NCBI RefSeq assembly: GCF_000313915.1
Contig: NZ_AMYT01000019.1
Coordinates: forward strand, 1-64,000
Length of the DNA stretch: 64,000 bases
Direction: 5' to 3'
DNA from: Catellicoccus marimammalium M35/04/3
Lineage (GTDB): Bacteria; Bacillota; Bacilli; Lactobacillales; Catellicoccaceae
Every line of letters starts with the position of its first letter. Position 1 is the first letter of the stretch. Of the stretch, positions 11,312 through 60,046 are shown piece after piece. The notes below the pieces were generated by a model. The model saw nothing but the letters and a program-made list of their open reading frames with translations, was not told the origin of the DNA and ran no database searches. Made by a program: the position numbers and the translations under genes.

Positions 11312-11545
11312 AAAAAAAAACTCTCCGCCCCAATATGCTTGGGACGAAGAGTATACTTCGCGGTACCACCCAAGTTCAGAGAAATCCTCTCTGCCCTTGA
11401 TCTTATTTAACGCATAAGAGACGGGATTACTTATTTCGCAATCCAATATCACAGATGGATTCACTACGCCACTGGATGACTCGCACCAACCGTCACCTCT
11501 CTGAACAGCTTCAATAGCTACTACTTCTGAACTTTTTATGATATT
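11312..11545 (-). ncRNA. T-box leader of serS (serine specifier UCC)
   Basis: The minus strand has the T-box core TGGGTGGTACCGCG (11359-11372). The terminator arms CTCTTCGTCCC/GGGCGGAGAG (11321-11351) follow, with a run of nine T (11312-11320). In stem I, GTGAA-TCC-A places UCC (Ser) at 11457-11459 as the specifier codon. Uncharged tRNA-Ser should stabilise the antiterminator and allow serS transcription. Confidence 0.93.
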
Positions 11546-15595: not shown

Positions 15596-16837
15596 TTATT
15601 TACCAATATAGCTACGCATTGCCTCTTTTATCGGTAAATAGTAATGATATAATTTCAATCCCTTATCTTGATTGTTGTAATTCCCATCTAATTCAAATTC
15701 TATTTCTGTATATCCTACTTCTTTTTCTGAAGGTAAAATCAAAGCAATTTGTGTTTTGCTCTCATTTCCTAGTTTTTCAAAATAATTTTTTAGTAAAAAA
15801 TAATATGAAATCTGTTTATAATCAATTCCTACTTTGTTCTTATAATATTTGGAATCAAAAATATACCGAATACCTCGATTTTCATCTTCAAAATAGTGAT
15901 CAATTTCTAAGCGATGGTTTTTACTATCACTTGTTTTAGGATGTCTACAATCTGGATAAAATGTTTTCTGTTCTTCGAATAGTCTATGTTTTCCATCAAA
16001 CCTTAATTGGTCATCTATGATTTGATCAAAAGATTTTAATTGATGATGGACTAATTTTTCCCAAATTTTATCAAAATGATGAATTTTTAACAAAATGTCT
16101 CCAGATGTGTTTCCTTCTGTCTTAAAGTAATTAATCAGTGCATCTATCAATTGTAAATGAATATCTTTAAACATAGTTTGCCGTAAATCATATAAACAGT
16201 TCAGAACATAACCTTTATTAGAAAATTCTTGTGGATTGAATGCATATTCGATAGGTTCTATTGAAAATAAAAAATTTAATTTTTGTGATACATCATTAAT
16301 TACATAAGCCATACAACGAGTAATAAATGTATCATATGGATTCTGTTTTTCAATTTTTAGAGGCATATACATCCATTGTCCTTGATATTCTAAAGGAGTA
16401 ACTGATTGGATAGTTTTACGCCAATTTATTTTTCCATAGTATCCATCTTTCAATTGCTTTTTCTCTTCATAATATAATCCAAATTGCTTGTAATAATTAT
16501 AGACAGTCGCAAAAGCAGAAAGTGGAAAATTATTTTGAGAATTCGATAAATCCTTCAATCCATTTTGAGCAGCTTTAATAATGGTGGCTAATAATAACTG
16601 AAAATCTTCTTTAGAAAATTCATTCTCTAAATTTTCTTGATAAAAATGTTTAGGAAAACTAATTAAAATATGATTTTCTTTCAAAATAAAACCGACAAAA
16701 TTAATATACTTTTTTTGATTCCACATTCTAATATCTTCTTCTTGATAAGATTGAATATCATTAAAAAATTCTTGCTCTATTTTCGAAGAAATTTCAGATC
16801 CATCTAGTACGATAGTGACATTTATTTTCTTATTCAT
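15596..16837 (-). CDS. LlaJI-type restriction endonuclease subunit R2 (McrC-like nuclease)
   Basis: 413 residues. The C-terminal half carries a PD-(D/E)xK-like centre: LEIDHYF (Asp313) and YIFDSKYY (Asp328, Lys330). In McrBC-type systems the McrC-like subunit cleaves DNA and is driven by the GTPase partner. It overlaps the end of the upstream McrB-like gene by 8 nt, implying coupled translation. With two C5 methyltransferases in the island, the set corresponds to the LlaJI restriction-modification system of Lactococcus (R1 McrB-like, R2 nuclease, M1, M2). The assignment is by architecture and motifs; the recognition site here is unknown. Confidence 0.8.
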   Translation of the reverse strand: MNKKINVTIVLDGSEISSKIEQEFFNDIQSYQEEDIRMWNQKKYINFVGFILKENHILISFPKHFYQENLENEFSKEDFQLLLATIIKAAQNGLKDLSNSQNNFPLSAFATVYNYYKQFGLYYEEKKQLKDGYYGKINWRKTIQSVTPLEYQGQWMYMPLKIEKQNPYDTFITRCMAYVINDVSQKLNFLFSIEPIEYAFNPQEFSNKGYVLNCLYDLRQTMFKDIHLQLIDALINYFKTEGNTSGDILLKIHHFDKIWEKLVHHQLKSFDQIIDDQLRFDGKHRLFEEQKTFYPDCRHPKTSDSKNHRLEIDHYFEDENRGIRYIFDSKYYKNKVGIDYKQISYYFLLKNYFEKLGNESKTQIALILPSEKEVGYTEIEFELDGNYNNQDKGLKLYHYYLPIKEAMRSYIGK

Positions 16838-18482
16838 TTTCTTCTATCTCATCGTCCATATTATAGGATACGTCTTTTGTAGAATGCATATTTTTCTCTA
16901 AACACCCCTTGAATTCTTCACTATAAATATCATAATGATTTTTCGCAGTTGCTTTCTGATATAAATCCCCAAAACTCTTAATGTTTTCATTGAATAAGCG
17001 TTTTTCTGTATGATAGCTAGCTTTTTCTACATCATGATACAAGTAGTACAAAACTTTATCTTTATAAGTTTCAAAATTCTTACTATCTTTGATAGTATAT
17101 AAGACTTTTGATTCTTCTAACAACGGATCAATCGTCATTGCGTCTTTTGCATCATAGTTCTTCATGAAAAATTGACCTAACTGCTTATCTTCTGATAATT
17201 GCAATCCCTTATCATCCACAATATAGTCATTCACAGTTTTGACAAAATCATTCCATTCCATTGTTTCTGTATCAGAATATGGTAATGAAAATTGATTTTT
17301 GTTGGAATCGATTGTGGTAGGGACATATTTCATTAAGAATCGACGTTTGAATGCAGTATCCATCACAAATACATTTTGATCACTTGTATTCATTGTACCA
17401 ATTAGATATAAATTCCCTGGAATATAAATTTTAGATTGATATTTATTCCAAGGATGAGATTTCCCTAGCTCTCTTTGTAAATAATTGGATAATTGAAGAT
17501 GATTAATTGGGTATTCACTTTCTCCTTGCCCATTGCGATCTAAAAGTTGGAAAATATCCCCAAACACACTTGCGCAATTTGCTCGACTCATTTCTTCCAA
17601 AATTAAAAACACTGGTTCATCTGGATGGCGATATGCATATACTATTGCTTGAGTAAATGATCCTGGATTAAAAATGTATTCCAATTGTCCTTCTTCATTT
17701 ACTGTTGGCATAATTTGACCTACAAAATCACTATATCCATATTCTGGATGGAAAGTAGTTCGAAAGACATCTTGGATGTATTTTTGAATTCCATAAGATT
17801 TCCCAGTTCCAGGTGCTCCATAAAAAATAAGATTAGAACCTATATTATCATCTATAGAAGTGTTTTGATTAGAATCAAAAGTAAGATATTTAGAATACGT
17901 CTTACTATTACCCATAATTTTAAAAATTGTATCGCTATCTTTATCACTCTTTAAAAGAATTACATATAGATTATTTTTATAGTTGAAAAAAAATAGTACA
18001 TCTCCTATGTTTGCTTGATTTCTAAGTTCCAAAAAGTCTTTACCATCCTTCTTTATCTTAGACAAGCCTAATTGATCTTTATCTTTTTTAGGAAAAATCC
18101 AAACATTAGTAATTGATTCAATAAATGTATTATCTTTTTCTACAAATAAATTTAATACGATATCTTTTTCTTCGCCGCTGGGAAAAATAATTCCATATAA
18201 TTTTAAGATATGATCTATATCTTCCTCTTCTAAAGAATGACATAATTCATTACTTAAAAAAAATTTTTTTCCTAGTTTATCGACAAAATATTTCTTAAAG
18301 AAATTCCTAGAGTCTCCAGTAACAGCTATATGTGCAGTCGAACCTTTAGTCCCTTCTTCTTTATTATTGAAAACAACATCTGCATTACTTAATTTCTTTA
18401 CATATATAGATTGAAATCCTTCTTTTTTAAATTGAGGATACCTATCTATGATAGTTTCTATCAAAATATTTTCAATTTCCAC
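16830..18482 (-). CDS. LlaJI-type restriction subunit R1 (McrB-like AAA+ GTPase)
   Basis: About 550 residues. The N-terminal ~215 residues are unlike the neighbouring copy and probably hold DNA recognition. A McrB-type AAA+ motor follows: Walker A GAPGTGKS, Walker B-like VFLILEEMSRAN, the McrB signature MNTSDQNVFVMDTAFKRRF, and a helical C-terminus. GTP-driven translocation by such subunits activates the R2 nuclease. A GTG at 18482 preceded by GGGGG is the best start; an ATG at 18518 would add 12 residues without an SD. Its motor region is about 930 bp of near-identical direct repeat with the broken copy at 20.8-21.8 kb. Divergent from M1. Confidence 0.82.
   Translation of the reverse strand: MEIENILIETIIDRYPQFKKEGFQSIYVKKLSNADVVFNNKEEGTKGSTAHIAVTGDSRNFFKKYFVDKLGKKFFLSNELCHSLEEEDIDHILKLYGIIFPSGEEKDIVLNLFVEKDNTFIESITNVWIFPKKDKDQLGLSKIKKDGKDFLELRNQANIGDVLFFFNYKNNLYVILLKSDKDSDTIFKIMGNSKTYSKYLTFDSNQNTSIDDNIGSNLIFYGAPGTGKSYGIQKYIQDVFRTTFHPEYGYSDFVGQIMPTVNEEGQLEYIFNPGSFTQAIVYAYRHPDEPVFLILEEMSRANCASVFGDIFQLLDRNGQGESEYPINHLQLSNYLQRELGKSHPWNKYQSKIYIPGNLYLIGTMNTSDQNVFVMDTAFKRRFLMKYVPTTIDSNKNQFSLPYSDTETMEWNDFVKTVNDYIVDDKGLQLSEDKQLGQFFMKNYDAKDAMTIDPLLEESKVLYTIKDSKNFETYKDKVLYYLYHDVEKASYHTEKRLFNENIKSFGDLYQKATAKNHYDIYSEEFKGCLEKNMHSTKDVSYNMDDEIEENE
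16900..17835 (-). repeat. Direct repeat, copy 1 (McrB-like motor region)
   Basis: Closely matches 20838-21760 in the same orientation except for one replaced segment (about 17090-17165). Similarity stops abruptly where the N-terminal domains begin. Confidence 0.85.
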
Positions 18483-18534
18483 AATAATCCCCCGTTCTGT
18501 TTGTATTAATTGTAACATAATATATTTATTATTG

Positions 18535-18549
18535 CCGGAAATAATCCGG
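18535..18549. promoter_or_regulatory. Inverted repeat between divergent R1 and M1 genes
   Basis: CCGGA-AATAA-TCCGG, a perfect 5-bp dyad. It lies in the 115-bp divergent intergenic region, next to AT-rich -10 candidates for both directions. It is a possible operator balancing methylase and nuclease expression, but no C-protein gene is present. Confidence 0.35.
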
Positions 18550-18597
18550 ATGTGGTATATTTATCATATTAATTTTGAAAGGAATCGAAATATTATT

Positions 18598-19698
18598 ATG
18601 ATTAATGTAGCTACAGTGTTCAGTGGTATTGGTGCGATAGAATGTGCTTTAAAAAGAATGAATATTCCTCACAAAATTATCTTTGCATGTGATAATGGAG
18701 AAAGAGAATTAAATATCTCGTATGAAGAAATTTCTAGGCAACTTCAAAATCGAAATAATGAATACGATATACAAACATTTATAAATAAAATTTATGATCA
18801 AACAGGAAAAAGAAACTATGTTCAAGAATCATATCAAGCTAATTATAATATAGACCCTAATAAATTTTTCCAAGATATAAGGTTTGTAGATGGGACTAAT
18901 TATAGAAACAAAATAGATTTATTTGTTGGAGGTAGCCCTTGCCAAAGTTTTTCTATTAGTGGAAAAAGAGCTGGATTAGATGATGCTAGAGGTACACTAT
19001 TTTATGACTTTGCTCGTCTAGTAAAAGAAATACAACCAAAGGTATTTATATATGAGAATGTTCCAGGAATGTTGAATCATGATAAGGGAAATACTTTTAA
19101 ACATATAAGCGAAATATTTGATGATCTTAATTATAATTGGAGATTTCAAATTCTAAATTCTAAAGATTATGGTATTCCTCAAAATAGAAAACGTCTATTT
19201 ATTGTAGGTTTTAGAAATGATTTAGATCTTGATATTTTTCAATTTCCAACACCAATAAAACTTAATTGTACTGTTAAACATTTTTTAGAAGATAATGTAG
19301 ATCATAAGTATTTCCATGGAGAAAAAGGATTTAAATGGATCACTAAGGATGAAAGTTTAAAAAAACGTGTCAGTATTAATTCTGATATATGTAGAACCCA
19401 AGCAGCAAATCAACAATTTAATTGGTGCGGAGAAATGGTATTTAAACCTATAGAACTTGAACCATGGGCGTACGAAGATGATAGAGTATATGTAGGAAAA
19501 TTTAATAATATTGAAGGAGTGGCGAGAAAGCTTACACCGAGAGAATGCTTACGCTTAATGGGATATGACGATAATTTTAAAATTGTTGTTCCAGATAAAC
19601 AAATTTATCGTCAAGCTGGTAATTCTATTGTAGTAAATGTTTTAGAGCATATACTACAAAGTATTATAGCCACTAATGTTTTTAAAGGAGATTTATAA
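18598..19698 (+). CDS. C5-cytosine DNA methyltransferase M1 (LlaJI-like)
   Basis: 366 residues with the ordered m5C motifs: I VFSGIGAIECAL, IV GGSPCQSFSI (catalytic Cys in PCQ), VI YENVPG, VIII PQNRKRLFIVGF, IX RECLRLMGY and X QAGNSIVVNV. The region between VIII and IX (target recognition) differs from M2. The start MINVATVFSG is chosen because the upstream extension is intergenic; GAAAGGA lies 14 nt away. The stop is followed immediately by the M2 ATG, so the two are co-translated. Two methylases side by side suggest an asymmetric site needing one enzyme per strand, as known for LlaJI. Confidence 0.9.
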   Translation: MINVATVFSGIGAIECALKRMNIPHKIIFACDNGERELNISYEEISRQLQNRNNEYDIQTFINKIYDQTGKRNYVQESYQANYNIDPNKFFQDIRFVDGTNYRNKIDLFVGGSPCQSFSISGKRAGLDDARGTLFYDFARLVKEIQPKVFIYENVPGMLNHDKGNTFKHISEIFDDLNYNWRFQILNSKDYGIPQNRKRLFIVGFRNDLDLDIFQFPTPIKLNCTVKHFLEDNVDHKYFHGEKGFKWITKDESLKKRVSINSDICRTQAANQQFNWCGEMVFKPIELEPWAYEDDRVYVGKFNNIEGVARKLTPRECLRLMGYDDNFKIVVPDKQIYRQAGNSIVVNVLEHILQSIIATNVFKGDL

Positions 19699-20781
19699 AT
19701 GTTGAAATTAGCAACTGTATTTAGTGGCATAGGGGCAATAGAATGGGCTTTAAAGAGACTAAATATAGATCATAAAATTGTGTTTGCATGCGATAATGGT
19801 GAAATTGACTTAGATTTTGAAAACATAGATTTCAAAAATATATCTAACAAAGCCGAATATATTCAAAATCTCTATGAACGAAGCCGTAAAACAAATTTTG
19901 TAAAAAAAACTTATATGGCTAATTATAATATAGATAACGATAATTTTTTATATGATGTCCGATTTATAGATGGATACCAATATAGAGGACAGGTTGATTT
20001 ATTTGTTGGGGGTAGCCCATGTCAAAGTTTTTCAATAATGGGATATCAAAAAGGATTAGATGATACAAGAGGTACATTATTCTATGATTTTGCACGCCTC
20101 GTAAAAGAAATACAACCAAAAGTATTTATATATGAAAATGTACAAGGTCTATTAAAACATGATAAAGGTAATACATGGGAAATTATTAAAAAAACTTTTG
20201 AATCATTAGGATATAAAATTTCATATCAACTACTTGACTCTAAAGATTATGATATTCCTCAAACAAGAAGAAGAATTTTTGTCATAGGTTTCCTTGATCA
20301 TAGTACCAATTTTTCATTTCCAAAACCAAAAAAATTAAATTATACTATGCAAGATTTCCTAGAAAGTAATGTAAAAGAAGGATATTTAAAATCCATTAAT
20401 GGTAATCTATCACTTGAGAATATTCCAGGTATTGTTGATGAAAAATACTTTTTATCTGAAAAGGTAACAAAACATGTACTATCTACAGGAACCAAAGGAT
20501 ACTATACAAAACCCGAAACAGACTTATCTATTGCTAGACCTTTGTTATCTACTATGCATAAAATGCATAGAGCAGGCGTAGATAATTATGTAACAGAAAA
20601 TGGTAAATTAAGAAGATTGACACCTAGGGAATGTTTACGTTTAATGGGATATGACGATACTTTTAAAATCGTAGTATCTGACACACAGATGTATAAACAG
20701 GCTGGAAATTCAATAGTTGTAGATGTGATGATGGAAATAATTAAAAATATTATGATAGCTTATCCTCAAATTTTTGAATAA
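19699..20781 (+). CDS. C5-cytosine DNA methyltransferase M2 (LlaJI-like)
   Basis: 360 residues and a clear paralogue of M1. Motifs are I VFSGIGAIEWAL, IV GGSPCQSFSIMG, VI YENVQG, VIII PQTRRRIFVIGF, IX RECLRLMGY and X QAGNSIVVDV. It begins at the base after the M1 stop; the AAAGGAG SD lies inside the end of M1. The recognition region (about 215-310) is unrelated in detail to M1, so it should methylate a different sequence or the other strand of an asymmetric site. It ends in a bidirectional terminator shared with the broken R1-like gene. Confidence 0.9.
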   Translation: MLKLATVFSGIGAIEWALKRLNIDHKIVFACDNGEIDLDFENIDFKNISNKAEYIQNLYERSRKTNFVKKTYMANYNIDNDNFLYDVRFIDGYQYRGQVDLFVGGSPCQSFSIMGYQKGLDDTRGTLFYDFARLVKEIQPKVFIYENVQGLLKHDKGNTWEIIKKTFESLGYKISYQLLDSKDYDIPQTRRRIFVIGFLDHSTNFSFPKPKKLNYTMQDFLESNVKEGYLKSINGNLSLENIPGIVDEKYFLSEKVTKHVLSTGTKGYYTKPETDLSIARPLLSTMHKMHRAGVDNYVTENGKLRRLTPRECLRLMGYDDTFKIVVSDTQMYKQAGNSIVVDVMMEIIKNIMIAYPQIFE

Positions 20782-20790
20782 AATTCATAA

Positions 20791-20826
20791 AAAAAAGACA
20801 TTGATAATTAATCAATGTCTTTTTTA
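20791..20826. terminator. Bidirectional terminator after M2
   Basis: AAAAAAGACATTGAT and ATCAATGTCTTTTTT arms around a 5-nt loop. It lies between the convergent M2 and R1-like pseudogene ends and overlaps the stop of the latter. Confidence 0.85.
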
Positions 20827-22470
20827 TTATTTTTTTCTTCTAAACACTCTTTGAATTCTTTACTATAAATATCATAATGATTTTTCGCAGTTGCTTTCTG
20901 GTACAAATCTCCAAAACTTTTAATATTTTCATTGAATAAGCGTTTTTCTGTATGATAACTAGCTTTTTCTACATCATGATATAAGTAGTACAAAACTTTA
21001 TCTTTATAAGTTTCAAAATTCTTTGCAAAATATGGAGTACTTTCTTCTTGAATAGAATCATCATTTCCTTTTTGATTCTTCCCTTTCATGAAAAATTGAC
21101 CTAACTGTTTATCTTCTGATAATTGCAATCCCTTATCATCCACGATATAGTCATTCACAGTTTTAACAAAATCATTCCATTCCATTGTTTCCGTATCAGA
21201 ATATGGTAATGAAAATTGATTTTTGTTGGAATCAATTGTAGTAGGAACATATTTCATTAAGAATCGACGTTTGAATGCAGTATCCATCACAAATACATTT
21301 TGATCACTTGTATTCATTGTACCAATTAAGTATAAATTTCTTGGAATATAAATTTTAGATTGATATTTATCCCAAGAATGAAACTCCCTTAACTTTTCAT
21401 GTAAATAATTAGATAGTTGGAAATGGTTAATTGGGTATTCACTTTCTCCTTGCTCATCGCGATCCAAAAGTTGGAAAATATCCCCAAACACACTTGCGCA
21501 ATTTGCTCGACTCATTTCTTCCAAAATTAAAAATACTGGTTCATCTGAATGAATATAAGCATATACTATTGCTTGAGTAAATGATCCTGGATTAAAGATA
21601 TATTCTAATTGTCCTTTTTCATTTACTGCTGGCATAATTTGACCTACAAAATCACTATATCCATATTCTGGATGGAAAGTAGTTCGAAAGACATTCTTGG
21701 ATGTATTTTTGAATTCCATAAGATTTCCCAGTTCCAGGTGCTCCATAAAAAATAAGATTATTCCCTACTATATTTCCGTATTGTACAGTTTTATTATTTG
21801 CTTCATAATTTATGTTTAAAGGACTTTCTATTTTTCTTTTTTGTTCATCATTAAAATATTCATGAACGTCTGTATCAATATTCATTAATAAGTATTGCTT
21901 ATTTTCCCATTTAATAACATTATTATTTGCTTGACAATTAATCCATAAAGAATATTGATATTTTCTTTTTATCTCTTCATGTAACTCATTTATATCATTG
22001 TCCTCTAATATATAATTACCATCTCCGTTTTTGATAATTTTTCCATTTTGCACTTGATAAATATTATCTATAAATGCCAAATTATCATTTGCCCTTATAA
22101 ATTTTAAAATGTATTCATTATCTGATATATTTTCTATATTTTCATCAAATCCATCTGAAATATATAAACTTATACTCCCATTTATTTTTTGTTCAAACAA
22201 TTCTTGTATAGATAATGATGTAGAGTAAAAATTTCTATTTCTATCTAAACTTTTACATATCTGATATGCTGTTTTGGTAGTTATATTATTGAATTTAACA
22301 GTCAATTCATAGCTATTCATCAAATTACTAATTAAAGGAGTTTTTTCTGAAATATTCTCTCCATATTTTATTTTTAAAATTATTGATCTAGATCCTTTAT
22401 CAATTCTATATTTATTAAACCAAGAAACTAAGTTTTTATAACTTATTTTCCAAACTTCTGCAAAATTCAT
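20808..22470 (-). pseudogene. Second R1 (McrB-like) gene, frameshifted inside the motor domain
   Basis: The 5' part (from ATG at 22470, SD GAGG) encodes a ~240-residue N-terminal domain unlike the intact R1, then GAPGTGKSYGIQKYIQ. There the frame is lost, and the normal sequence FRTTFHPEYGYSDF resumes in another frame to 20808. Compared with the intact copy (GACATCTTGG at about 17767) this copy reads GACATTCTTGG at about 21697-21703, one extra T. The rest of the motor is intact, including MNTSDQNVFVMDTAFKRRF, but the extreme C-terminus is shorter. It is probably a disabled alternative-specificity R1 subunit, unless the frameshift is a sequencing error or is bypassed. Confidence 0.85.
20838..21760 (-). 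repeat. Direct repeat, copy 2 (McrB-like motor region)
   Basis: Partner of 16900-17835 in the same orientation. The two copies flank the R1 N-terminal domain and both methylase genes. Confidence 0.85.
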
Positions 22471-22646
22471 AATATTTCCTCACTTTGCCTATACTTTGTT
22501 CTAAAGTATTAAATTATACAATCATTGATTCTCTCATTACTTTATTATTACATATTAAAAACGGTCCGACAAAGGTACTTCTCTACTTGTATATTTTTTT
22601 TCAAAAAGGTAAACTGTTGAACAGATGAATAGAAAGGATTAAAAAC

Positions 22647-26320: not shown

Positions 26321-26375
26321 CTTGTTGTGTTTGGCAACATAATAAACTTTCCGGGGCTTATCATGGGGCAAAACA
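26321..26375 (-). ncRNA. L13 leader RNA (rplM autoregulatory leader, candidate)
   Basis: The minus-strand RNA reads GCCCCGGAAAG then UUUAUUAUG, followed by the hairpin UGUUGCCAAACACAACA (about 26322-26340). This resembles the Firmicutes L13_leader family found upstream of rplM. It sits between the mapped promoter and the rplM SD. Assigned by eye, without a covariance search. Confidence 0.5.
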
Positions 26376-26387
26376 ATACCATATACA

Positions 26388-27701: not shown

Positions 27702-27902
27702 TTATTTCCAAAAATCTTTTCTATTTTTTCTATAATCAGTAACTCTTTTTTTAGACATGATTTTTGCTTTTTTAATCGAGCCACATTTTATCCAATCATG
27801 AATAAAATAAAAAACTAAAGAAAACGCACCATCAAAATATACATTTACCCAAAAATATAAGGCAATTAAAACAACACACAATAAAACAATAAATATTACC
27901 AT
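27702..27902 (-). CDS. Small membrane protein A of the tandem cluster (type Y)
   Basis: 66 residues. One N-terminal hydrophobic helix (IFIVLLCVVLIALYFWVNVY) and a second less hydrophobic stretch lead to a lysine/arginine-rich tail. The ATG has AGGAG 7 nt upstream. The start and leader lie in a 141-bp repeat shared with the 28892-29089 gene, whose product is a paralogue. TATAAT at 27989-27994 (minus strand) is a promoter candidate about 87 bp upstream. I do not recognise the family, and no function should be assigned. Confidence 0.6.
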   Translation of the reverse strand: MVIFIVLLCVVLIALYFWVNVYFDGAFSLVFYFIHDWIKCGSIKKAKIMSKKRVTDYRKNRKDFWK

Positions 27903-28024
27903 GACTGATCTCCTACACTACTTTCTAACGTAATCTCTACTAATAACGTTAAACCTTTCTTTCCATGTCTTTTTCACATTATTACTATATTATATTCACT
28001 ATTTTACTTAGAATCTTTTTTATT
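27884..28024. repeat. 141-bp direct repeat, copy 1
   Basis: About 95% identical (seven differences by eye) to 29071-29211. It covers the start of gene A, its leader and promoter, and reaches the stop of the next gene. Confidence 0.9.
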
Positions 28025-28221
28025 TATCGCCATTTATATTTATCCATCTTACTGGAACAAAATAAAACTTGCCAAAAAGTACAAATGACCATATTTTTAA
28101 AGCGATCAAAAGTCTTATCCTTAATCAATAAAAATTCAATCATATGGATAACGAGTAATCCCAAATAACAACTCAACCAAATACCAAAAATAGATATAAC
28201 AATAAAAATTAAAATTGCCAT
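28024..28221 (-). CDS. Small membrane protein B of the tandem cluster (type X)
   Basis: 65 residues. N-terminal hydrophobic helices (ILIFIVISIFGIWLSCYLG...) are followed by FDRFKNMVICTFWQVLF, a short amphipathic segment that recurs in the cluster (TFWSLF in the 28639 gene), and a basic tail. GGAG lies about 11 nt before the ATG, and a TATAAT (28304-28309, minus strand) about 85 bp upstream. Unknown family. Confidence 0.55.
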   Translation of the reverse strand: MAILIFIVISIFGIWLSCYLGLLVIHMIEFLLIKDKTFDRFKNMVICTFWQVLFCSSKMDKYKWR

Positions 28222-28324
28222 ATATTACCAAACTCCATTTCCCCTGCATCATCAATGACAAATGATATAACTTTTTTCCTTTAAAATCTTCTTCTACATT
28301 ACTATTATATTACATAAAAAATTT

Positions 28325-28370
28325 AGCCTCGAATTCGAATTATAGGACGACAACCCTATCGAGGAATTTT
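28325..28370. terminator. Bidirectional hairpin in the 28222-28638 gap
   Basis: CCTCGA and TCGAGG close a structure with an inner CCTA/TAGG pair. T-runs lie on both outer sides (ATTTTTTTG on plus, AATTTTTT on minus). Apart from this, the next terminator and the gene B promoter, the 417-bp gap has no gene I can support. Confidence 0.6.
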
Positions 28371-28490
28371 TTTGTCTTTTTGTATGAAATCATTAAATTC
28401 ATGCGATTACTCTAAATATAAAAAAACAACGGAAATAGAAAATCATGATATAATCTATATTGAAAAGAATACTAGACAATTATGTCAAAA

Positions 28491-28525
28491 CAAAAAGGAC
28501 GAGGCTATCACCTCGTCCTTTTACT
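28491..28525. terminator. Strong bidirectional terminator inside the small-protein cluster
   Basis: AAAAAGGACGAGG/CCTCGTCCTTTT hairpin with a 6-nt loop. A TATAAT on the plus strand at about 28449 could produce a ~65-nt RNA ending here. Confidence 0.75.
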
Positions 28526-28638
28526 TTTGTTCACTCAAAAGATTTTATTTAAACTTGTTCTTAGAACTATTTTCTCTTAGAGTTAAGCCATTCAATAATA
28601 TAATTTGCAATTATACTTCAACTCAAAGTCTTTTTATT

Positions 28639-28851
28639 TTACTTTTTAAATTTGCTAATCATACCAAAAAGACTCCAAAAAGTATTAGAAATCATTTTCT
28701 TCAAATCTTCTTTCCAATTACTTTTATCTTTTTGTGTTAATAAATAAAAAATTAAGCTAATCAAAAATGATACACTATAATAACTAATAAATAATCCAAT
28801 TAAGGCTAGTATAATCACTAAAAAAATATTCATATTATGAAAAATATTCAT
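28639..28851 (-). CDS. Small membrane protein C of the tandem cluster (type X)
   Basis: About 70 residues from the ATG at 28851, which has GGAG 9 nt upstream; an ATG at 28866 overlaps that SD. The hydrophobic region NIFLVIILALIGLFISYYSV continues into a second span, followed by LKKMISNTFWSLFGM and a basic end. It shares the TFW-x-LF segment and the leader pattern (AACTCCATTT on plus) with gene B. Unknown function. Confidence 0.55.
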   Translation of the reverse strand: MNIFHNMNIFLVIILALIGLFISYYSVSFLISLIFYLLTQKDKSNWKEDLKKMISNTFWSLFGMISKFKK

Positions 28852-28891
28852 ACGATCCAACTCCATTTTCTTACACCATTAACGACATAGA

Positions 28892-29089
28892 TTATAACTT
28901 CTTATTTTTTCTATACAGTAAAATTTCAGCTTTTGCTTTTTCTTTAGCAAAGGAATAATTATGCTGTACCCAATTTTTAATAAAATGATAAACAATAATA
29001 ACCAAATAATCTCTAATATCAGTAACTTTAGCATAAAAAATAAAAAATATAATAACTAAAATAATTAGACAAACAATAAATATTACTAT
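28892..29089 (-). pseudogene. Small membrane protein D of the tandem cluster (type Y), start codon changed to ATA
   Basis: 65 sense codons closely parallel gene A: I/MVIFIV..., a hydrophobic helix, an IVYHFIKNWV segment like FYFIHDWIK in A, and a basic tail ending RKNKKL. At the position of A's ATG this copy has ATA (29087-29089), although AGGAG and the leader are preserved. Either the gene has lost its start or uses a non-standard ATA/ATT start. It is missed by start-codon-based gene finding. Confidence 0.6.
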
Positions 29090-29211
29090 GACCGATCTCC
29101 TACACTACTTTCTGACGTAATCTCTGCTAATAACGTTAAACCTTTCTTTCCATGCCTTTTTGACATTATTACTATATTATATTCACTATTTTACTTAGAG
29201 TCTTTTTTATT
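29071..29211. repeat. 141-bp direct repeat, copy 2
   Basis: Partner of 27884-28024, offset 1187 bp. Contains the start region of gene D, leader, TATAAT (29176-29181) and the end of gene E. Confidence 0.9.
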
Positions 29212-29460
29212 AGCTTTTCGTTTCTTATATTTTTCCATCCATTGTAAAAGGTAAATCGATTTCCAATCTTTTTTAAAACTTTCTATCGAACAATCTAAAC
29301 CTTTTGGTAAATAAATAATGAAATCTAATATACTAAAGAAAAAAGTATAAACGATATTTCCACCTAAAATAAAAAATGGCAGTAATACTAAAAAAAGAAT
29401 AATCGCTAATATGAAATAAAATCCTGTTGAAAAAAAATCACTTACTGATATTAATACCAT
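29191..29460 (-). CDS. Small membrane protein E of the tandem cluster
   Basis: 89 residues. A long hydrophobic N-terminal region with two likely membrane helices (FYFILAIILFLVLLPFFILG and the following stretch) leads to IESFKKDWKSIYLLQWMEKY and a lysine-rich end. The layout (membrane part, aromatic amphipathic segment, basic tail) matches its neighbours. GAGAGGG lies 12 nt before the ATG. Its 3' end falls inside the 141-bp repeat. Unknown function. Confidence 0.6.
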   Translation of the reverse strand: MVLISVSDFFSTGFYFILAIILFLVLLPFFILGGNIVYTFFFSILDFIIYLPKGLDCSIESFKKDWKSIYLLQWMEKYKKRKANKKDSK

Positions 29461-29523
29461 CGATGACTATCCCTCTCTTATCATTTTACTTATAACCACT
29501 TTATTTACTTACTATTCACATTT

Positions 29524-29805
29524 TTATTTTTTCTTTTCTTCTTGTTCTTGATTGCTTCTTTTTTTATCCAAAAATTTTGGTTTATGTGGCAATAAAAATA
29601 CATACCATATATCATTTTTAAGAGTCTGAACAAATTTTTTATGCGCTCTTTCTTTTTCTTCTGCAGATTTATCTTTTCCACCAAAAACATAAACAATAAA
29701 ATATTGTAAAGTATCAGATACAATCAATCCAATATATCTAAGTATAAGTAATATAAAGATACAAATAGCAAAAAATAATATCGCCGCAATAATCTCATCT
29801 ACCAT
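29524..29805 (-). CDS. Small membrane protein F of the tandem cluster
   Basis: 93 residues and the first of the cluster in the direction of transcription. The N-terminal helix (IIAAILFFAICIFILLILRY) and second span (LIVSDTLQYFIVYVF) are followed by a charged cytoplasmic-type region with FVQTLKNDIWYVFLLP and a Lys/Glu-rich tail. GGGAG lies 6 nt before the ATG, the best SD of the group. No promoter is clear upstream; read-through from rbsU past its terminator is possible. Unknown family. Confidence 0.65.
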   Translation of the reverse strand: MVDEIIAAILFFAICIFILLILRYIGLIVSDTLQYFIVYVFGGKDKSAEEKERAHKKFVQTLKNDIWYVFLLPHKPKFLDKKRSNQEQEEKKK

Positions 29806-58778: not shown

Positions 58779-59963
58779 TTATTTAGTTAACGCAGCTTTT
58801 AATGCATCTACTTTATCTGTACGTTCCCATGGTAAATCTACATCGGTACGACCGAAGTGACCATAAGCTGCTGTTTGTTTATAAATTGGTCGACGTAAGT
58901 CTAACATTTTAATAATTCCTGCTGGGCGTAAATCAAAGACTTTACGAACGGCAGCAATTAATTGCTCTTCTGTATACTCACTAGTACCAAAAGTATCAAT
59001 GGCAATAGATACAGGTTCTGCCACACCAATCGCATAAGCTAATTGAACTTCACATTTATGAGCTAAACCAGCAGCGACAATATTTTTGGCAATATAGCGA
59101 GCAGCATAACTAGCAGAGCGGTCTACTTTTGTTGCATCTTTTCCTGAGAAAGCTCCACCACCATGACGAGCATATCCACCATAAGTATCTACGATAATTT
59201 TACGTCCTGTTAATCCTGCATCTCCACAAGGGCCACCGATAACAAAACGGCCGGTTGGATTAATATAATATTTTGTATCTTCATCTAATAATTCTTTTGG
59301 CATTACTTCGTCAATGACATAAGTACGCATATCTTTTTGAATTTGTTCTAAAGATACATCTGGATCATGTTGTGTACTTAAAACAATCGTATCAATACGT
59401 TTGGCTTTATCATTTTCATCATATTCTACCGTTACTTGTGCTTTTCCATCTGGACGTAAGTAAGGTAAAATTCCTTCTTTACGAACTTCTGCTAGACGTT
59501 TTGTTAAACGATGACTTAACGCAATTGGTAATGGCATTAATTCTTCTGTTTCATCAATCGCAAAACCAAACATTAAGCCTTGGTCTCCAGCACCTGTATC
59601 GCTATTTTCATCCGTAGATTGGTCTAACGCTTGGTCTACCCCTTGAGCAATGTCTGGAGATTGTTCATCAATCGCTACTTGCACAGCACAAGTATCTCCA
59701 TCAAAACCATATTTAGCACGAGTATAACCAGCATCTTTAATCGCTTGGCGAACGACTTTTTGAATATCAACATAAGTACTTGTTGTAATTTCACCAAACA
59801 CCAATACTAATCCAGTAGTTACCGCTGTTTCACAAGCAACGCGTGCCATTGGATCTTTTTCCAAAATCGCATCTAAAATCGCATCACTAATTTGGTCCGC
59901 TAACTTATCTGGATGTCCTTCCGTTACGGATTCGGAAGTAAATAATTTTTTTTCTTTTTCCAT
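58779..59963 (-). CDS. metK: S-adenosylmethionine synthetase
   Basis: 394 residues. Makes SAM from methionine and ATP. Motifs: [20 protein letters not shown] at the N-terminus, [12 protein letters not shown] (ATP site), and [19 protein letters not shown]. Single gene, controlled by an SMK (SAM-III) riboswitch whose helix includes the SD, so high SAM blocks translation. Confidence 0.98.
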
Positions 59964-59968
59964 TTTTC

Positions 59969-60040
59969 TATTCCCCCTTAATGAATCGGTTACAAGGCAT
60001 CTTTATCCGTACAGATAAATCCTATCGGGAAGCTGTAACG
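59969..60040 (-). ncRNA. SMK box (SAM-III) riboswitch
   Basis: On the minus strand GTTACAGCTTCCCG (5' end at about 60040), AGGATTT, AAAGATGCCTTGTAAC, CGA and the GGGGGAA Shine-Dalgarno (59971-59979) appear in the order and spacing of the Lactobacillales SMK box. SAM binding pairs the SD with the anti-SD and shuts off metK translation. Confidence 0.95.
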
Positions 60041-60046
60041 TTTAAC

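What the first reader, a model, noticed from the sequence alone, without database searches (positions are those of the whole stretch)
15596..22470. LlaJI-like restriction island with two R1 (McrB-like) genes and one R2
Known LlaJI has M1, M2, R1 and R2. Here the nuclease R2 and one R1 are divergent from M1-M2, and a second R1 with an unrelated N-terminal domain lies beyond M2. The shared GTPase motor and different N-termini suggest interchangeable specificity subunits for one nuclease. That would be an unusual modular arrangement for a McrBC-type R-M system.
Basis: partly seen in the sequence, partly recalled or inferred. Interest (0 to 1): 0.75.

Follow-up and report, generated by a model that had tools for sequence, protein, structure and literature searches.

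The report
Restriction system with two specificity motors
A small bacterial genome carries a phage-defence restriction system in which the same DNA-scanning motor gene is present twice with two unrelated DNA-recognition heads but only one DNA-cutting partner; one copy is freshly broken, so this looks like a natural head-swap caught halfway rather than a working two-headed machine.

Summary
In detail: nuclease R2 and motor R1A are divergent from two m5C methyltransferases (M1, M2), and a second motor, R1B, lies convergent beyond M2 with a near-identical GTPase half (90% DNA) and an unrelated N-terminal half. R1B carries one frameshift at the P-loop linker and is otherwise intact; dN/dS between the two motors is 0.27, so it was a maintained gene until recently. 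It is a LlaJI-type R-M system. M1 and M2 are an old orthologous pair found together elsewhere, so they are one system's two methylases, not two systems. The N-terminus of R1A belongs to a family that occurs with M2-type methylases, which makes R1A the cognate motor. R1B's N-terminus has no detectable relative. Heads swapped onto a constant motor are common in this family (29 of 42 pairs with 70-80% identical motors have unrelated heads), but no other of about 150 loci, nor genome and plasmid searches, showed two R1 genes beside one R2. Best reading: an alternative specificity subunit for the one R2, made by duplication and head replacement, recently inactivated. A repeated CCGGA upstream of M1, shared with a phage-borne orthologue, is a candidate operator or target. 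'Interchangeable working subunits' is plausible but unproven.

The parts
15596..16837 (-). R2, LlaJI-type PD-(D/E)xK nuclease (413 aa); the only copy in the genome
   Evidence: (REase_II 4e-9; single; D313, D328, K330 invariant; the first P of the PD motif is I)
16830..18518 (-). R1A, McrB-like motor with N-terminal recognition half; overlaps the R2 start by 8 nt
   Evidence: P-loop GAPGTGKS, MNTSDQN signature
17844..18518 (-). N-terminal half of R1A (head A); remote relative of R1 heads in L077, L038, L175
16830..17843 (-). GTPase half of R1A, paralogous to that of R1B
18535..18550 (.). CCGGA-N6-CCGGA direct repeat in the promoter region between divergent R1A and M1; candidate operator and/or recognition site
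   Evidence: (only match in the window, 0 in shuffles; same element about 20 bp upstream of orthologous M1 in L172)
18598..19698 (+). M1, C5 cytosine methyltransferase
19699..20781 (+). M2, C5 cytosine methyltransferase, different target-recognition region from M1
20791..20825 (.). terminator-like stem-loop between convergent M2 and R1B, A/T runs on both sides
20808..22470 (-). R1B, second McrB-like motor gene, own RBS and leader, one frameshift near 21695
20808..21767 (-). GTPase half of R1B (90% DNA identity to R1A); contains the frameshift near 21695
21768..22470 (-). N-terminal half of R1B (head B); open frame, no detectable relatives, 22% GC
22491..22509 (.). perfect inverted repeat ATACTTT-N5-AAAGTAT just upstream of R1B; possible operator of its own

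Best explanation
A LlaJI-type restriction-modification system. M1 and M2 methylate the two strands of one asymmetric site (inferred from the conserved pair). R1A binds that site when it is unmethylated through head A, its GTPase ring moves on DNA, and R2 cuts (inferred from LlaJI and McrBC). R1B arose by duplication of the motor with replacement of the recognition head, stayed under purifying selection, most simply as a second specificity subunit recruiting the same R2, and was inactivated recently by one frameshift. With no third methylase in the locus, loss of a functional R1B is what one expects once its target is no longer protected. Shown: anatomy, paralogy, head replacement, selection, lesion, single R2. 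Inferred: R2 sharing, R1B target, reason for loss.
For: Paralogous motors, unrelated heads, junction at the GTPase start. dN/dS 0.27 (0.21 without one hypervariable stretch) with dS 0.30, and no change at positions conserved across 147 motors: R1B was maintained. One lesion only, RBS and both reading frames otherwise open. Only one R2 and two m5C methylases in the genome. M1 and M2 types co-occur in 6 loci of 99 with m5C genes (8 M1-type, 10 M2-type); L172 and L070 carry the pair in the same order at 62-67% identity. Head A relatives L038, L077, L175 all sit beside an M2-type methylase. LlaJI R1 alone sets specificity and needs R2 (PMC1459862). Head swaps on near-constant motors are frequent.
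Against: No relative with two R1 genes, so co-use of one R2 is untested. R1B is not in a working state in this genome. Patches of identity between the motors (129 identical bases around the P-loop; P 0.005 on all sites, 0.09 on synonymous codons) suggest gene conversion, which would let R1B be older or of more separate origin than its motor suggests. The head A link is remote (phmmer 1.5e-5 to L077 among about 160 sequences). R1A itself has one of the shortest P-loop linkers of the set (14 residues against 18-21 in most), so even R1A activity is not certain.
Confidence: 0.55

Rival explanations
1. R1B is the last remnant of a second complete LlaJI-like system that stood next to the first; its own R2 and methylases were deleted and its motor has been made similar to R1A by gene conversion.
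For: Patchy identity between motors; R1B has its own leader and a possible own operator; the genome is small and has another broken restriction gene.
Against: No R2 or methylase remnant: only 26 bp, filled by a terminator, separate R1B from M2; the motors are sister with support 1.0 and closest outsiders below 50%.
Confidence: 0.25
2. The frameshift is a sequencing or assembly error and both R1 genes are live, giving one nuclease two specificities at the same time.
For: One lesion only, in an otherwise constrained gene; draft assembly of 23 contigs.
Against: No reads available; a second active specificity would need protection of its sites and no third m5C methylase is in the genome, unless R1B recognises modified DNA or the M1/M2 site.
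Confidence: 0.1
3. R1A and R1B acted together in mixed hexamers, so that one complex read two sequence elements.
For: McrB motors assemble as hexamers bridged by McrC (PMC6624300 abstract); the two motors are nearly identical.
Against: No evidence of joint expression; separate leaders; every other locus manages with one R1.
Confidence: 0.05
4. R1B was never a restriction subunit after duplication; its fragments now act as regulators, as the GTPase-only short form of McrB does.
For: E. coli McrBS precedent (PMC12707154); the 312 aa ORF lacks the P-loop.
Against: Purifying selection up to the lesion over the whole motor; the short ORF lacks a P-loop, unlike McrBS.
Confidence: 0.05

Closest known systems
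LlaJI (Lactococcus lactis pNP40; locus L021)
   Same: Two m5C methylases, one McrB-like R1 with a unique N-terminus, one PD-(D/E)xK R2; R1 is the specificity subunit (PMC1459862).
   Different: Four co-directional genes and one R1; here R1A-R2 are divergent from M1-M2 and a second R1 with another head is present.
LlaI / BsuMI-type split systems (L022, L026, L055 and others)
   Same: Closest motors and R2 nucleases by sequence.
   Different: Recognition protein separate from a GTPase-only motor, and in the loci seen here a double m6A methylase instead of two m5C enzymes.
McrBC
   Same: GTPase motor plus nuclease, variable N-terminal recognition domain (PMC7680126, PMC11090510).
   Different: Modification-dependent, no cognate methylases. 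L172 and L173 show M1-M2 orthologues beside McrB/McrC-like genes, so the boundary is porous.
Type I R-M systems with alternative hsdS genes
   Same: Works-like comparison only: several specificity variants with one set of other subunits (own knowledge).
   Different: Not homologous; here motor and recognition head are one polypeptide.

Membership tests
LlaJI-type R-M system | Two C5 cytosine methylases with different target-recognition regions | tested here: met
   M1 and M2 49% identical, TRDs differ, each with its own orthologues
LlaJI-type R-M system | R1 with McrB-like GTPase domain (P-loop, NTxD-type signature) | tested here: met
   GAPGTGKS and MNTSDQN in R1A; R1B has them but is frameshifted between P-loop and the rest
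LlaJI-type R-M system | R2 with D...DxK catalytic residues, next to R1 | tested here: met
   D313, D328, K330 invariant against LlaJI R2; P of the PD motif replaced by I
LlaJI-type R-M system | Asymmetric recognition site, one methylase per strand | not testable with these tools
   supported only indirectly by the conserved M1-M2 pair and by the CCGGA repeat
LlaJI-type R-M system | Restriction of unmodified DNA needing both R1 and R2 | not testable with these tools
   bench test
LlaJI-type R-M system | Four co-directional genes, one R1 (as in the type example; gene order is not a functional criterion) | tested here: not met
   15 methylase genes in other surveyed loci also run opposite to R1, so orientation varies within the family; the second R1 is the real departure
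McrBC type IV system | No cognate methylase; modification-dependent | tested here: not met
   two methylases in the locus; for R1B alone this is open
B3-domain recognition head, as in H. pylori LlaJI.R1 | B3 fold in the R1 N-terminus | tested here: inconclusive
   no Pfam or PDB sequence match; AlphaFold models of both heads at mean pLDDT 31 and 38 are unusable

The most novel reading that the evidence does not exclude
A McrBC-type nuclease that naturally uses two different specificity motors encoded side by side, so that the cell changes or widens what it restricts by switching R1 genes while keeping R2; the frameshift is either an error or a recent loss in this one strain.
Probability: 0.15. 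Interest if true: 0.7.

Novelty: new variant of a known kind. Interest (0 to 1): 0.4.

Why it matters
It catches, in one locus, the step by which McrB-like restriction motors get new specificities: the motor is copied and the recognition head replaced at the domain border. It offers a natural pair for testing whether heads can be exchanged on one motor and nuclease, which would make these systems modular in the way type I systems are. The M1-M2 pair with a shared CCGGA repeat gives a cheap, direct prediction of the target.

Tried and rejected
Apparent multiple R1 copies in genome G024 are the same genes on duplicated plasmid contigs with many frameshifts, an assembly artefact. Two systems each with one methylase: rejected because M1 and M2 are an old pair. 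Programmed frameshift or phase variation in R1B: no slippery heptamer or simple repeat at the site (sequence). AlphaFold of both heads: confidence too low, no fold search made. Relatives of head B: none in plasmids, phages, viral contigs, 395 order genomes; a profile hit to L119 covers 66 residues next to the motor only. Relatives of head A in 348 class genomes: none besides the own genome. Direct repeats at the island borders: only 8-10 nt, chance level. CCGGA avoidance in the window: observed/expected 0.87, not informative. CCGGA upstream of other M1 orthologues (L228, L229): absent there, where another gene lies directly upstream; similar CCGG repeats occur between divergent M and R1 genes of unrelated systems (L128, L138), so it may be an operator rather than the target. 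Literature search for two McrB genes with one McrC: nothing of the kind found in the titles and abstracts returned from the open-access set.

Full report
Observation. Five genes lie between a secreted glycosidase-like gene and an unrelated chromosomal gene, in DNA of 22-31% GC against about 35% for the surroundings. R2 and R1A run left, M1 and M2 run right from a shared promoter region, and R1B runs left, convergent with M2 across a terminator-like stem-loop. The GTPase halves of R1A and R1B match over 953 positions at 90% including gaps; the N-terminal halves do not match. The switch from no similarity to near identity falls at the first strand of the GTPase domain. R1B has one frameshift near 21695, just after the P-loop. 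Its start, ribosome-binding site, head B frame and the rest of the motor are open.

State of R1B. Between the motors dS is 0.30 and dN 0.08, ratio 0.27 (0.21 without one hypervariable stretch). Positions that differ are variable across 147 family motors; conserved motifs are intact in both. A gene that had been dead since duplication should have drifted more, so R1B was maintained and the lesion is recent, or an error. Identity is patchy, with 129 identical bases around the P-loop (P 0.005 over all sites, 0.09 over synonymous codons), so some gene conversion is likely but not proven. Both motors share an unusually short P-loop linker (14 residues in R1A against 18-21 in most; one other locus, L166, has 14).

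Membership. Motor signature, two C5 methylases and R2 catalytic residues agree with LlaJI. Published work shows R1 of LlaJI to be the sole specificity subunit, both R1 and R2 to be needed, and the site to be asymmetric with two methylases (PMC1459862; PMC12707154). By sequence the window's motors and R2 are nearest to the LlaI/BsuMI-like loci, where the motor stands alone and the recognition protein is separate, usually with a double m6A methylase.

M1 and M2 are one system. M1 is 64% and M2 67% identical to adjacent genes of a viral contig (L172), 62% and 66% in a Firmicutes MAG (L070), 55% and 56% in L173, in the same order. Target-recognition regions are conserved within each type but differ between types. 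Of 99 loci with m5C genes, 8 have the M1 type, 10 the M2 type and 6 both. So the M1-M2 split is old. In L070 the pair serves a LlaJI-type R1-R2 from another motor clade, in L172 and L173 McrB-type motors with other heads: methylases, heads and motors recombine.

Which head belongs to M1-M2. Head A is a remote member of a family of R1 heads in L077, L038 and L175. All three of those loci carry an M2-type methylase; for the two found first the chance of this is 0.009. This makes R1A the likely cognate motor, though the second methylase of those loci is not of the M1 type. Head B has no detectable relative.

How unusual. Among 149 R1 proteins, unrelated heads occur in 4 of 13 pairs with 80-90% identical motors and 29 of 42 pairs at 70-80%, so head replacement is normal in the family; McrB-like motors with variable heads are also in the literature. 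Two R1 genes beside one R2 were found nowhere else: 153 loci, 398 phylum genomes (one genome has two motors about 24 kb apart), 78 plasmid records with 82 places (records with two places were not all inspected). The genome has one R2 and no other m5C methylase.

A candidate site. CCGGA-N6-CCGGA lies between the R1A and M1 starts, is the only such match in the window, and is expected zero times in shuffles. The same element, CCGGAAAAAAGCCGGATG against CCGGAAATAATCCGGATG, lies upstream of M1 in L172. LlaJI is regulated through its own recognition sites in its promoter (O'Driscoll 2005 as described in PMC11779793), and CCGGA is asymmetric, as a two-methylase system requires. Against it: orthologues L228 and L229 lack the element, and CCGG repeats also occur between divergent M and R1 genes of other systems. 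I put 0.35 on CCGGA being the target.

Mechanism and verdict. The simplest account is a LlaJI-type system whose motor was copied with a new head, giving an alternative specificity subunit for the single R2, and whose second copy has recently failed. Sharing of R2 and activity of R1B are inferred. Rivals are a remnant of a second system, a sequencing error hiding two live motors, mixed hexamers, and regulatory fragments.

Noticed in passing
window 27702-29805: About 2 kb of very A+T-rich (25% GC), strongly skewed DNA holding a row of five diverged small ORFs (65-93 aa, minus strand), each with one hydrophobic, probably membrane-spanning segment and most with a lysine-rich tail; looks like a tandem family of small membrane proteins.
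   Followed up: no
G000:C15:98699-99422 (outside the window): N6 methylase (hsdM-type) match broken by several stops, so a type I restriction system in the same genome also looks decayed.
   Followed up: no
window 17780-17810 and 21690-21720: Both R1 motors have a P-loop to next-motif linker at least four residues shorter than nearly all relatives, and the R1B frameshift sits exactly there.
   Followed up: partly
window 22491-22509: Perfect inverted repeat ATACTTT-N5-AAAGTAT directly upstream of R1B, unique in the window.
   Followed up: partly
L172 3961-10225: A viral contig carries M1-M2 orthologues followed by McrB- and McrC-like genes: a type II-like methylase pair on a McrBC-type nuclease.
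   Followed up: partly
L024, L025: Genome G024 has two small contigs that repeat the same LlaI-like plasmid with many frameshifts, probably a misassembled dimer.
   Followed up: yes
window 11337-11544, 26324-26380, 59961-60043: T-box leader upstream of a seryl-tRNA synthetase-like gene, L13 leader, and a SAM-III riboswitch.
   Followed up: no
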